Positions 31,597 through 37,468 of a DNA stretch of 64,000 bases are shown here, piece by piece (the first letter of the stretch is position 1; every line of letters begins with the position of its first letter). Source of the DNA: Stenomitos frigidus ULC18 (GTDB taxonomy: Bacteria > Cyanobacteriota > Cyanobacteriia > Leptolyngbyales > Leptolyngbyaceae). Below the pieces are notes generated by a model. That model was not told the origin of the DNA, made no database searches, and saw only the letters and a program-made list of their open reading frames with translations. Location: NCBI RefSeq assembly GCF_003003795.1, contig NZ_PVWK01000014.1:1-64000 (forward strand). The letters run 5' to 3'. Both the position numbers and the translations under genes were made by a program.

Positions 31597-31620
31597 GGGC
31601 AGGACGTGCCATGCCCTTAC
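31593..31620. repeat. Palindrome between convergent genes
   Basis: GTAGGGGCA and TGCCatgCCCTTAC form an imperfect hairpin that overlaps the stop codons of both convergent genes. It may serve as a two-way terminator. It belongs with the GTAGGG-type palindromes at 54136 and 61584. Confidence 0.5.
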
Positions 31621-35900: not shown

Positions 35901-37468
35901 ACCAGTGAGGCATAGCGGATGAATTGAATGGTGTCGCCCATGCCCTGTTCGGTGTAGAGCAGGATGGTTTTACCGTCTAGTGGCGTACCGTCCCAGAGTG
36001 GCTGGGGGAACGATCGCGCTGGGTTTTGTTCTCGAAATTTGCTCCACTGCAAGCGCCATTCGTAGCCAGCGAAACCTTGCGCCAAATCGCCTGTAAACAG
36101 TTGCGTGAGGGCTTTGTTCCACTGCGCCTCCACAAAATCGGGATTGATTGCCAGGGCTTGTTCGTAAGCCGCAAAGGCGGCGTCAATATCACCGTGGTTG
36201 CGTCGAGCGATGCCGAGGTTGTTGTAAGCTCCTGTGTAGTCGGGTTGCGCGACGATCGCCGCCTCCAAGTGCTCAAACGCCTCCGCAAACGCACCCTCTT
36301 GCTGGAGTAAGTTGCCCAAATTACTGCTAATTTCGGCATAGTTGGGGTTGATTGCTAACGCCTGACGATAACAGTCGATCGCGGCCTCAATATGACCCTG
36401 TTCCTGGTAGGTGTTGCCCAGGTTGTTATGCACTTCAGCATAGTCGGGACGAATGGCAAGCGCTTCGTGAAAGTGAGCGATCGCGTCGTCAAACTTTCGC
36501 TGTTCTTTTAGCACAGAGCCTAGGTTGCTGTGGGCTTCCGCAAAGTGCGATCGCAAACTGAGTGCCCGCTCGTAATGCGCGATCGCGTCTTCTAGCTTGC
36601 CTTGCTCCTGGAGCGCGTTGCCCAGGTTGTTGTGCGCTTCGGGATACTCCTCCCGCAACGCCAGTGTGTCACGGTAGATCTTAATAGATTCCTCCAGCTT
36701 GCCTTGCTGCTGAAGGACGTTGGCGAGTGCGTGATGCGCTTCAAGATAGGCTGGCTTCAGCGCGATCGCCTGCTGATAGTGCACGATAGCATCCTCCAAC
36801 TTGTCCTGCTGCTGCAGCGTATTGCCCCAAGCGTGATGTGCTTCAGGATAATTGGCTTTGAAGGCGATCGCCTGTTGGTAATAGTTAACCGCGTCCTCAA
36901 ACTGTCCCTGACGCTGCAAAGCGACGCCCAGATTGTGATGCGCCTCTGCATAGTTGGGCTTCAGGAGAATGGCTTCCCGATAGTGGGCGATCGCGTCATC
37001 GAACTGCCCCTGATCTTTGAGCGCAATGCCCAGGTTGTTATGCGCTTCGGGGTAGTGAGGTCGTAAGGTGAGGGCTTTCTGGTAGGCAGCGATCGCGCCG
37101 TCCAGGTCGCCCAGTTCCTTCAGCGCGTTGCCAAGATTGTTCGACGCTTCAACATGGTCTGGTTGTCGAGTGAGCGCTTGCTGATAGTGCGCGATCGCCT
37201 CGTCTAACTTGCCCTGCCCTTTGAGCGCAATGCCCAGGCTGTTGTAGGCATCGGGATTGTCGGGTTGCACGGTCAGCACCGTTTCAAAGCAGGCAATCGC
37301 CTCTTCAAAACGATGCTGCTGGTAGACCAGCGCACCTAAAAGATTCAGGGCGTCTACAGCATGAGGCTGCTGCTCAATGATCTGGCGGTAGGCAGATTCT
37401 GCCTCAGCAGTGCGTCCACTACGATGAAGTTGTAATGCAGCAGTCAACGAGTCGGGGGGAGGCGTCAT
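32951..37468 (-). CDS. Giant TPR and GT9-like protein with two modules joined by repeat-encoded linkers
   Basis: The ORF encodes 1505 residues. Module 1 (about 1-750) has about 12 TPRs and then a GT9-like domain with TEQGMGDTIQFIRYASLVAQ and VAVDTAIAHLAGALGKPVW. Linker 1 (about 753-830) is purely repeat-derived (GQRSAVS, TQNSKLSS and HPTPHTP runs). Module 2 (about 832-1378) repeats the TPR plus GT9-like layout. Linker 2 (about 1380-1475) is again heptamer-encoded, and the last 30 residues are an out-of-frame reading of module 3. Both GT domains also carry an [11 protein letters not shown] loop. Such TPR-glycosyltransferases are probably cytoplasmic and act on polysaccharide or protein; the substrate is unknown. 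The ATG at 37468 is sound. Confidence 0.75.
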   Translation of the reverse strand: MTPPPDSLTAALQLHRSGRTAEAESAYRQIIEQQPHAVDALNLLGALVYQQHRFEEAIACFETVLTVQPDNPDAYNSLGIALKGQGKLDEAIAHYQQALTRQPDHVEASNNLGNALKELGDLDGAIAAYQKALTLRPHYPEAHNNLGIALKDQGQFDDAIAHYREAILLKPNYAEAHHNLGVALQRQGQFEDAVNYYQQAIAFKANYPEAHHAWGNTLQQQDKLEDAIVHYQQAIALKPAYLEAHHALANVLQQQGKLEESIKIYRDTLALREEYPEAHNNLGNALQEQGKLEDAIAHYERALSLRSHFAEAHSNLGSVLKEQRKFDDAIAHFHEALAIRPDYAEVHNNLGNTYQEQGHIEAAIDCYRQALAINPNYAEISSNLGNLLQQEGAFAEAFEHLEAAIVAQPDYTGAYNNLGIARRNHGDIDAAFAAYEQALAINPDFVEAQWNKALTQLFTGDLAQGFAGYEWRLQWSKFREQNPARSFPQPLWDGTPLDGKTILLYTEQGMGDTIQFIRYASLVAQRGGRVIVECQPLLMNLLQGVAGIQQFIPYGNPLPNFDVHVPLLSLPHLFNTTLETVPADIPYLQHPTPHTPHPIPSLLTPHPSLNIGIVWQGNPQNPYNRSRACPLERLLTLAALPNVQLYSLQKEPSLADQQQLEANPNVQDLRSHLHDFVDTAALIHQLDLVIAVDTAIAHLAGALGKPVWLLLPFAPDWRWMQQRDDSPWYPTMRLFRQPAYGDWESVIEQVREVLVVSGQRSAVSGQRSGGMRHKAGREAGEAREAGGRRQEAGIRKTQNPKLSSVAAQRATQNSKLSSHTPHPTPHTPKSPLPQALKDAVRHHQAGRYQEAEQLCRQVVEQQPEQSEAWHLLGMIAHQERRFDDAIAAYRRALVASPDHYDTYNNLAVALQEQDRIDEAIAHYEKAIALKPDHADAHNNFANALRHKGRTDEAIAHYKKAIALRPQYADAHNNLGLIYFAQEQFAQAAACYRQAIALKPDFSQAHNHLGNALKELGDFEQAITHYQRAIALKPDYAKAYNNWGNIIRDRGELQEAVGYYNQATAIEPNFAEAHWNKALTLLLDGDLQAGFAEYEWRWQVKLPTFQPLRPFSQPRWDGSPLDGKTIFLLAEQGMGDMIQFVRYVPLVAQLGGRIILECHTPLMNLFKGMPHVQAIVSYGSTPPAFDVHAPLMSLPHILGISLDTVPATIPYLPHPTPHTPHPIPPLLIPHPTLKIGIVWEGNPQNPYNRTRACPLDLLLLLADLPGIALYSLQKELSSGDRALLQTQPHIHDLREHLHDFVDTAALINQLDLVIAVDTSVAHLAGALGKPVWLLLPFAPDWRWMLKRDDSPWYPTMRVFRQPGYGDWAGVIAQVREVLGEEGEKRSAVSSQQSAVRSQRSAVRNHESGVNVVASTSEAGINDVRGSRKSGVKSQESEARINSKLSNVAAQSATQNSKLKTQNSKLKTPHTPHPTPHSPSPSSITTTVTLLKLNRFVVKSFNSSLIR
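33041..33330 (-). repeat. Linker 2 heptamer field inside the TPR-GT gene
   Basis: On the plus strand: three GTGTGGG units plus a partial one (33050-33072), six perfect TTTTGAG units (33073-33114), the palindromic core GTAGCGCTTTGCGCCGCTAC (about 33113-33132), TGACTCC-type units (about 33165-33270) and CTGACCG/CTGACTG units (about 33270-33322). All are read in the open orientation by the minus-strand gene. Confidence 0.9.
33775..33842 (-). repeat. CCCCACA heptamers inside the module 2 GT domain
   Basis: The plus strand shows GTGTGGG and GTGTGAG units. The gene reads them as [11 protein letters not shown] just before the strand KIGIVWEGNPQNP. Module 1 has the same insertion at about 35640-35705; module 3 lacks it. 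Confidence 0.85.
34980..35212 (-). repeat. Linker 1 heptamer field inside the TPR-GT gene
   Basis: GTGTGGG units (34988-35017), TTTTGAG units around the palindromic core GTAGCTCTTTGCGCCGCTAC (about 35037-35056), TGCCTCC-type tracts (about 35090-35165), and six GACCGCT units (about 35166-35206). The gene reads all of this in frame as its inter-module linker. Confidence 0.9.
35640..35705 (-). repeat. CCCCACA heptamers inside the module 1 GT domain
   Basis: GTGAGGG and GTGTGGG units encode a Pro/His/Thr-rich loop before NIGIVWQGNPQNP, at the same point of the fold as in module 2. Confidence 0.85.

What the first reader, a model, noticed from the sequence alone, without database searches (positions are those of the whole stretch)
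31617..37468. Three TPR-GT9 modules in tandem, fused by translated heptamer repeats, with the third one heptamer out of frame
Modules 1 and 2 are joined in one 1505-codon ORF by a linker made only of heptamers. A second heptamer linker leads into module 3, but the frame is off. The distance from the giant ORF start (37468) to the module 3 frame (32924) leaves remainder 2 on division by 3, so gain of one 7-bp unit or loss of two would make a single protein of about 1,950 residues. The linker has six perfect TTTTGAG units at 33073-33114, ideal for slippage. In effect this may be a length switch (phase variation) that turns the third module on or off. I know of no described case of a heptamer doing this in a cyanobacterial glycosyltransferase array.
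Basis: partly seen in the sequence, partly recalled or inferred. Interest (0 to 1): 0.78.

Follow-up and report, generated by a model that had tools for sequence, protein, structure and literature searches.

The report
Triple glycosyltransferase gene with slipped heptamer
A cyanobacterial gene that in the relatives checked encodes one long protein with three sugar-transferring modules is, in this genome, cut before the third module by a net change of about one 7-base repeat unit; this is most simply a slipped repeat (or a sequencing error), not a proven on/off switch.

Summary
The 1,505-codon ORF (37468..32951, minus strand) carries two TPR-glycosyltransferase modules. A third intact module (open 33134..31617) lies one heptamer out of frame, with no ATG, GTG or TTG start before 32924, inside its TPRs. 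Gaining one CTCAAAA unit or losing two gives one protein of 1,952 or 1,945 aa. Comparison reverses the emphasis: the fused protein is the normal state. Modules 2 and 3 share one ORF in 13 of 13 informative relatives in the family; a 14th is cut by a contig end. Five of five relatives with a heptamer-bearing second linker are in frame. Module 3 shows no decay. Heptamers are dispersed repeats that also sit inside other genes. In 2.05 Mb of this genome, 54 of 56 arrays flanked by long open frames are in frame; one exception is a gene boundary, the other is this one, the second-longest of 37 such perfect runs. Best reading: replication slippage gave a recent or minority frameshift allele of a conserved triple GT9-type enzyme. 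Assembly error is the main rival. A selected phase switch is not supported, nor excluded without reads.

The parts
36125..37468 (-). Module 1 TPR array, ATG start at 37468
   Evidence: Pfam TPR matches
35207..36124 (-). Module 1 glycosyltransferase (GT9-like) domain
   Evidence: (boundaries), PF01075 23.1 bits vs 22 cut-off
35642..35704 (-). In-frame heptamer array inside the module 1 GT domain
34983..35206 (-). Linker 1 (heptamer arrays plus dispersed cassette), in frame; end placed by eye
34253..34982 (-). Module 2 TPR array
33338..34252 (-). Module 2 GT9-like domain
   Evidence: PF01075 22.6 bits
33799..33836 (-). In-frame heptamer array inside the module 2 GT domain
33116..33337 (-). Linker 2, upstream part (degenerate heptamers and dispersed cassette)
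33072..33115 (-). Perfect (CTCAAAA)6 array, 44 bp; most likely site of the frame break
33044..33073 (-). (CCCCACA)n array directly downstream
32951..33134 (-). Stretch in which both the giant frame and the module 3 frame are open, up to the giant-ORF stop at 32953..32951
32538..33050 (-). Module 3 TPR array, no ATG/GTG/TTG upstream of it in its frame
31617..32537 (-). Module 3 GT9-like domain, intact
   Evidence: PF01075 23.5 bits; model mean pLDDT 87.8; fold matches

Best explanation
The locus encodes one long, modular glycosyltransferase: three copies of a unit made of a TPR array and a GT9-type (heptosyltransferase-like) domain, tethered by low-complexity linkers. In this lineage the linkers have been filled by the genome's dispersed heptamer repeats. 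In the assembly the second linker has changed by a net one heptamer (loss of one or gain of two), most simply by replication slippage in the 44-bp perfect CTCAAAA array. Translation then ends about 30 codons behind the arrays and module 3 is not made from a normal start. Shown: fused state conserved, break confined to a ~91-bp stretch that is mostly array, module 3 intact. Inferred: slippage as cause; that the slipped allele is recent or a minority; activity of the modules.
For: Modules 2 and 3 are in one ORF in 13 of 13 informative relatives, with two conserved neighbour genes in all six congeners. Five of five relatives with period-7 sequence in junction 2 are in frame; chance about (1/3)^5 = 0.004 if independent. 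Module 3 GT domain NG86 dN/dS against four congeners is 0.063-0.114, as for GT1 (0.078-0.137) and GT2 (0.070-0.100); its dN to outgroups is like that of the nearest relative G001 (0.130/0.150 to G004, 0.172/0.165 to G002, 0.167/0.167 to G005). It departs at 2 of 77 columns invariant in 16 homologues; the others range from 0 to 7. Of 56 arrays between long open frames in 2.05 Mb, 54 are in frame; the other exception has a new gene with ATG two codons after the array. In 400 kb of G001, 20 of 20 are in frame. The window array is the second-longest of 37 such perfect runs. Only unit numbers 1, 4, 7, 10, 13 of 1-13 give the fused protein.
Against: No second isolate or read set of this species could be examined, so slippage is not observed. 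The longest intragenic perfect run (61 bp, C92:50335-50395) is in frame, so length alone does not force breaks. Junction 2 of relatives differs by more than unit number, so the ancestral count is unknown. A 1-bp loss or 2-bp gain in the same ~91 bp would give the same frame.
Confidence: 0.6

Rival explanations
1. Assembly or sequencing error: the true linker is in frame and one unit (or one base) was lost in the draft assembly.
For: Draft of 167 contigs. The contig of congener G003 starts inside this very linker and those of G006 and L039 are cut within the gene, in a GT domain, so the gene is hard for assemblers. Every informative relative is in frame.
Against: The same assembly holds a 110-bp perfect heptamer run and a 61-bp intragenic one that is in frame; 54 of 55 arrays counted as intragenic are in frame, so unit-count errors cannot be common.
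Confidence: 0.25
2. Selected phase variation: unit number in the CTCAAAA array switches module 3 on and off in the population, changing a surface glycan or glycoprotein.
For: Perfect 44-bp array with a unit not divisible by 3; each count predicts one of three protein lengths. A mid-ORF heptanucleotide frameshift in a surface protein gene is a described candidate case (PMC2651432, passages). Lengths of the same array type differ widely within the genome.
Against: None of 13 informative relatives is off. Period-7 sequence is absent from junction 2 of four of nine relatives. Such repeats lie in frame in a Clp ATPase of the window and in moeA of G001, so intragenic arrays need no switching role; the Clp gene does have a paralogue, so its loss might be bearable. 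The array is ~4.4 kb into the gene, whereas SSRs are enriched near gene ends (Lin and Kussell as cited in PMC4692102).
Confidence: 0.1
3. Ribosomal frameshifting or reinitiation makes module 3 from the present sequence: a -1 shift on AAAA or CCCC runs in the overlap, or restart after the stop at 32951.
For: The needed shift is -1 and both frames are open over about 180 bases with repeated AAAA and CCCC runs. An AGGGG lies upstream of TTG 32924 (sequence).
Against: No informative relative needs it: all 13 are in frame. No slippery site is conserved in linkers that differ this much. A start at 32924 (residue 48 of the model) would remove the first two TPR helices and most of the third.
Confidence: 0.05

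Closest known systems
GT9 glycosyltransferases (WaaC, WaaF, TibC; Veillonella 3tov)
   Same: GT domain matches PF01075 just above cut-off and the model's best solved matches are 3tov (Z 18.5, 246 aligned, rmsd 2.9), WaaF 1psw (17.8, 244, 3.1), WaaC 2h1f (17.2, 234, 3.3) and TibC 4rap (16.6, 246, 3.0)
   Different: 12-16% identity to these four; fused to TPR arrays and repeated three times in one chain; donor and acceptor unknown
TPR-fused protein glycosyltransferases (OGT and SPINDLY; GT41 is a recalled label)
   Same: TPR array followed by a glycosyltransferase domain; top Foldseek rows for the whole module are SPINDLY, largely through the TPRs
   Different: The GT domain alone ranks GT9 structures first (E 2.5e-8) and an OGT only at 9.6e-4; several modules in one chain
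Cyanobacterial heptamer repeats (three heptanucleotides of Calothrix PCC 7601; GGGGA(C/T)T of Nostoc PCC 7120; TAACTGA)
   Same: Dispersed tandem heptamers, mostly intergenic with a sizeable intragenic share (68% intergenic in Nostoc; PMC4692102, passages). [quoted passage not shown]
   Different: Other unit sequences; frame behaviour of intragenic arrays was not the subject of the passages seen
Heptanucleotide SSR frameshift inside hmw1A of Haemophilus influenzae PittAA
   Same: (AATTTTG)14 3.5 kb within a 7.3-kb ORF with a frameshift consistent with unit-number change (PMC2651432, passages)
   Different: Adhesin-type gene of a pathogen with many strains compared; here a glycosyltransferase of a cyanobacterium with one assembly

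Membership tests
GT9 (heptosyltransferase-type) glycosyltransferase | Sequence match to PF01075 above the gathering score | tested here: met
   23.1, 22.6 and 23.5 bits against cut-off 22 for modules 1, 2, 3; only 30-33 residues matched
GT9 (heptosyltransferase-type) glycosyltransferase | Fold closest to known GT9 structures | tested here: met
   GT9 structures hold the first eight rows (Z 16.4-18.5) and the first nine, for the module 3 GT domain; modules 1 and 2 were not folded
GT9 (heptosyltransferase-type) glycosyltransferase | Transfer of ADP-heptose or another sugar | not testable with these tools
   needs enzyme assay
OGT/SPINDLY-type (GT41) glycosyltransferase | GT41-type catalytic domain behind the TPRs | tested here: inconclusive
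   PF01075 is the only Pfam family above its cut-off for the three GT domains; an OGT appears at rank 35; GT9 ranks first
Phase-variable simple-sequence contingency locus | Tandem array in the ORF whose unit number sets the frame | tested here: met
Phase-variable simple-sequence contingency locus | Array kept at the orthologous place, with on and off states among relatives | tested here: not met
   13 of 13 informative relatives on; no period-7 sequence in junction 2 of four of nine relatives
Phase-variable simple-sequence contingency locus | Variation of unit number within a population | not testable with these tools
   no reads and no second isolate of the species were available
Cyanobacterial dispersed heptamer repeats (STRR type) | Short heptamer arrays dispersed in many copies, mostly between genes | tested here: met
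   123 matches of a three-unit CTCAAAA query in the genome, overlapping ones included; 93 of 130 perfect runs of 24 bp or more in 2.05 Mb are not flanked on both sides by 120 open codons
Decayed pseudogene module | Relaxed selection or further disabling changes in module 3 | tested here: not met
   no stop inside the 505-codon frame; dN/dS and invariant residues as in intact modules
Programmed ribosomal frameshift gene | Frame change and slippery site conserved in orthologues | tested here: not met
   13 of 13 informative relatives have no frame change at this junction

The most novel reading that the evidence does not exclude
Heptamer unit number switches the number of glycosyltransferase modules (two or three) in a single giant enzyme of a cyanobacterium, and the many other in-frame intragenic heptamer arrays of this genome form a wider set of potential contingency sites.
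Probability: 0.1. Interest if true: 0.7.

Novelty: new member of a known kind. Interest (0 to 1): 0.38.

Why it matters
It shows how dispersed heptamer repeats colonise linkers inside proteins, and how strictly the reading frame is kept there: 54 of 55 arrays counted as intragenic in 2.05 Mb of this genome and 20 of 20 in 400 kb of a congener. Because 7 leaves remainder 1 on division by 3, all three frames of an array read the same 7-codon cycle, so unit changes alter little in the linker but shift everything behind it. The window gives one candidate site where that constraint has just been broken, which makes slippage rate and its cost testable. If the switch were real, it would be a length switch for a multi-module glycosyltransferase.

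Tried and rejected
Rejected: module 3 as an independent gene. No ATG/GTG/TTG start in its frame before 32924, and the informative relatives are fused. Stand-alone single-module TPR-GT9 ORFs do exist among other homologues (for example L042, L057, L059, L086, L091, L092, L105, and a second match in G031, L293), but they are not shown to be orthologues of this locus. Rejected: decay of module 3. YN00 rates failed (nan) for 2 of 30 comparisons, so NG86 values are quoted.

C111:8966-9028 first looked like a second broken gene; translation shows two different genes, the second with ATG next to the array (read by eye as a phosphatase and an ABC ATPase, no family search). At least one of the 54 in-frame arrays (C111:46213-46243) is scored on the strand opposite to the longer ORF, so 54 is an upper figure. 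The pattern control is no control, since the reversed pattern is a rotation of the same repeat. Stop-bearing units looked as if confined to non-coding places, but the difference is weak: 8 of 9 units without a stop-free strand against 85 of 121 others lie outside long open frames.

Literature: one search found no paper and one review; some searches gave the papers quoted or, as far as their listings show, nothing on this point. I saw passages of PMC4692102, PMC2651432 and PMC4679880, and search listings of the rest. The NCBIfam scan of the giant protein gave TPR-protein families among the 25 rows shown and added nothing. The whole-module fold search was filled by TPR matches, so the GT domain was folded alone. 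Not available: reads, a second isolate of the species, metagenome scans.

Full report
What is there. On the minus strand an ATG ORF runs 37468..32951 (1,505 aa) and contains two units, each a TPR array followed by a glycosyltransferase domain. A third such unit follows in another frame, open from 33134 to the stop at 31619..31617. The frame offset is 2, so one heptamer more or two fewer would join it. In silico, only array counts of 1, 4, 7, 10 and 13 units of the 1-13 tested give the fused protein (1,938 to 1,966 aa); the present six give 1,505 aa. The third unit has no ATG, GTG or TTG in frame before 32924, which is inside its TPRs. The two frames are open together only between 33134 and the stop at 32953, and homology of module 3 to relatives begins near 33044. 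The break is therefore within about 91 bp, about 72 of which are the CTCAAAA and CCCCACA arrays.

What the modules are. Each GT domain passes the Pfam cut-off for Glyco_transf_9 narrowly, over 30-33 residues. A model of the module 3 GT domain built from 19 sequences has mean pLDDT 87.8. Its best solved matches are GT9 enzymes: 3tov, WaaF, WaaC, TibC, at Z 16.4-18.5 with 234-246 residues aligned (Foldseek's first nine rows agree). The whole-module model (17 sequences, pLDDT 88.6) shows twelve helices of a TPR array in front. Donor and acceptor are unknown.

The fused state is the norm. In the genus, G001, G002, G004 and G005 have all three modules in one ORF of 1,910, 1,940, 2,036 and 1,938 codons; G006 is cut by its contig end but fused across junction 2; G003's contig starts in the linker and says nothing. 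At family level, 15 of 42 genomes match module 3 at E <= 1e-140, the window's own included. Of the 14 others, 13 have the second and third GT domains in one ORF and the 14th is G003. In the congeners a GT2-TPR-methyltransferase gene and moeA lie beside the locus in all six (domains). The Clp gene lies on the other side in G001, G002 and G005; in G004 it is on another contig; in G003 and G006 the contig ends before. Outgroup proteins carry a further, GT4-type module at the C-terminus (L038, L040). The linker is conserved as a linker but not in sequence: of nine relatives checked, junction 2 has no period-7 sequence in G006, L038, L039 and L043, and 56-148 period-7 bases in G001, G002, G004, G005 and L040; all nine are in frame.

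Module 3 is not decaying. NG86 dN/dS for its GT domain against four congeners is 0.107, 0.114, 0.088 and 0.063, like those of modules 1 and 2. Its dN is like that of the nearest relative G001: 0.130 against 0.150 to G004, 0.172 against 0.165 to G002, 0.167 against 0.167 to G005. It departs from 2 of 77 columns invariant in 16 homologues. This argues against an old frameshift; it does not date a recent one.

The heptamers are a genome-wide matter. The stretch 32900-33400 has 63 matches in its own genome, self-match included. In the first 860 kb surveyed, 38 of 112 array clusters lay inside ORFs with at least 30 codons on either side, many encoding the same few peptide cycles, including an insert between the two ATPase domains of the neighbouring Clp protein. 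The survey was then widened to 2,053,206 bases on 18 contigs, 29% of the genome; these contigs were taken because earlier calls had shown them (repeat, GT or Clp matches), so they are not a random sample. There, 248 clusters were found, of which 56 are flanked on both sides by at least 120 open codons: 54 in frame, 2 not. One of the two is a boundary between different genes. The other is the finding. In 400 kb of G001, 20 of 20 are in frame. The counts are not all independent: five of the 54 lie in the giant ORF itself and three of the 20 in its G001 orthologue; at least one of the 54 is scored on the strand opposite to the longer ORF. The finding's array is the second longest of 37 perfect runs of at least 24 bp flanked in this way.

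Mechanism. The simplest account is replication slippage in a long perfect array, giving a frameshift allele of a gene whose fused form is under selection. Since module 3 is intact, the allele is recent, a minority in the culture, or an artefact of the assembly. The assembly does hold a 110-bp perfect run elsewhere, and nearly all intragenic arrays are in frame, so error is not the default, but it cannot be excluded without reads. A selected switch would predict off states among relatives and a kept array; neither is seen.

Known context. Dispersed heptamers in cyanobacteria, with part of them inside genes, are described (PMC4692102, passages), tolerance of such repeats between subunits of modular proteins was proposed (PMC4679880, passages), and a mid-ORF heptanucleotide with a frameshift is described in Haemophilus influenzae (PMC2651432, passages). 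My searches listed no report of this in a cyanobacterial glycosyltransferase, within an open-access library only and by listings, not full reading.

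Noticed in passing
window 39289-39379: Heptamer arrays inserted in frame between the two ATPase domains of a Clp (ClpB/ClpC-type) gene (37885-40437); G001 has arrays in its Clp gene too (G001:C11:671631-671723). A 68%-identical paralogue exists in the genome (C14).
   Followed up: partly
window 29328-29360: Short repeat array (period 8) inside moeA (28451-29737); G001 moeA carries an in-frame period-7 array (G001:C11:661480-661534).
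   Followed up: partly
window 40722-43172: TIR-NB-ARC/NACHT-TPR protein, a possible defence or signalling STAND protein.
   Followed up: no
window 8934-12260: nSTAND1 protein with in-frame heptamer arrays at 9261-9320 and 10968-10997.
   Followed up: partly
window 16906-16966: Perfect 15-bp repeat, 4.1 copies, at the very start of ORF 16896-17693 (a unit divisible by 3, so length-variable but frame-neutral).
   Followed up: no
window 46750-46828: Perfect 19-bp repeat (3.1 copies) running into an AGCTATC heptamer array between listed ORFs; that unit forms 9 perfect runs in 2.05 Mb, none flanked by long open frames on both sides.
   Followed up: partly
window 4171-4510: Degenerate 21/42/63-bp repeat array next to ORF 4620-5342.
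   Followed up: no
L038:10441-11658, L040:10546-11781: Outgroup orthologues carry a GT4-type further module fused behind module 3; it is not fused there in the seven genomes of the window's genus.
   Followed up: partly
L045, L050, L054, L063: In other relatives (Oscillatoria, Hormoscilla, Okeania) chains of TPR-GT9 modules are split over overlapping or abutting ORFs, in L045 and L054 within a GT domain: possibly further frame breaks or assembly errors.
   Followed up: no
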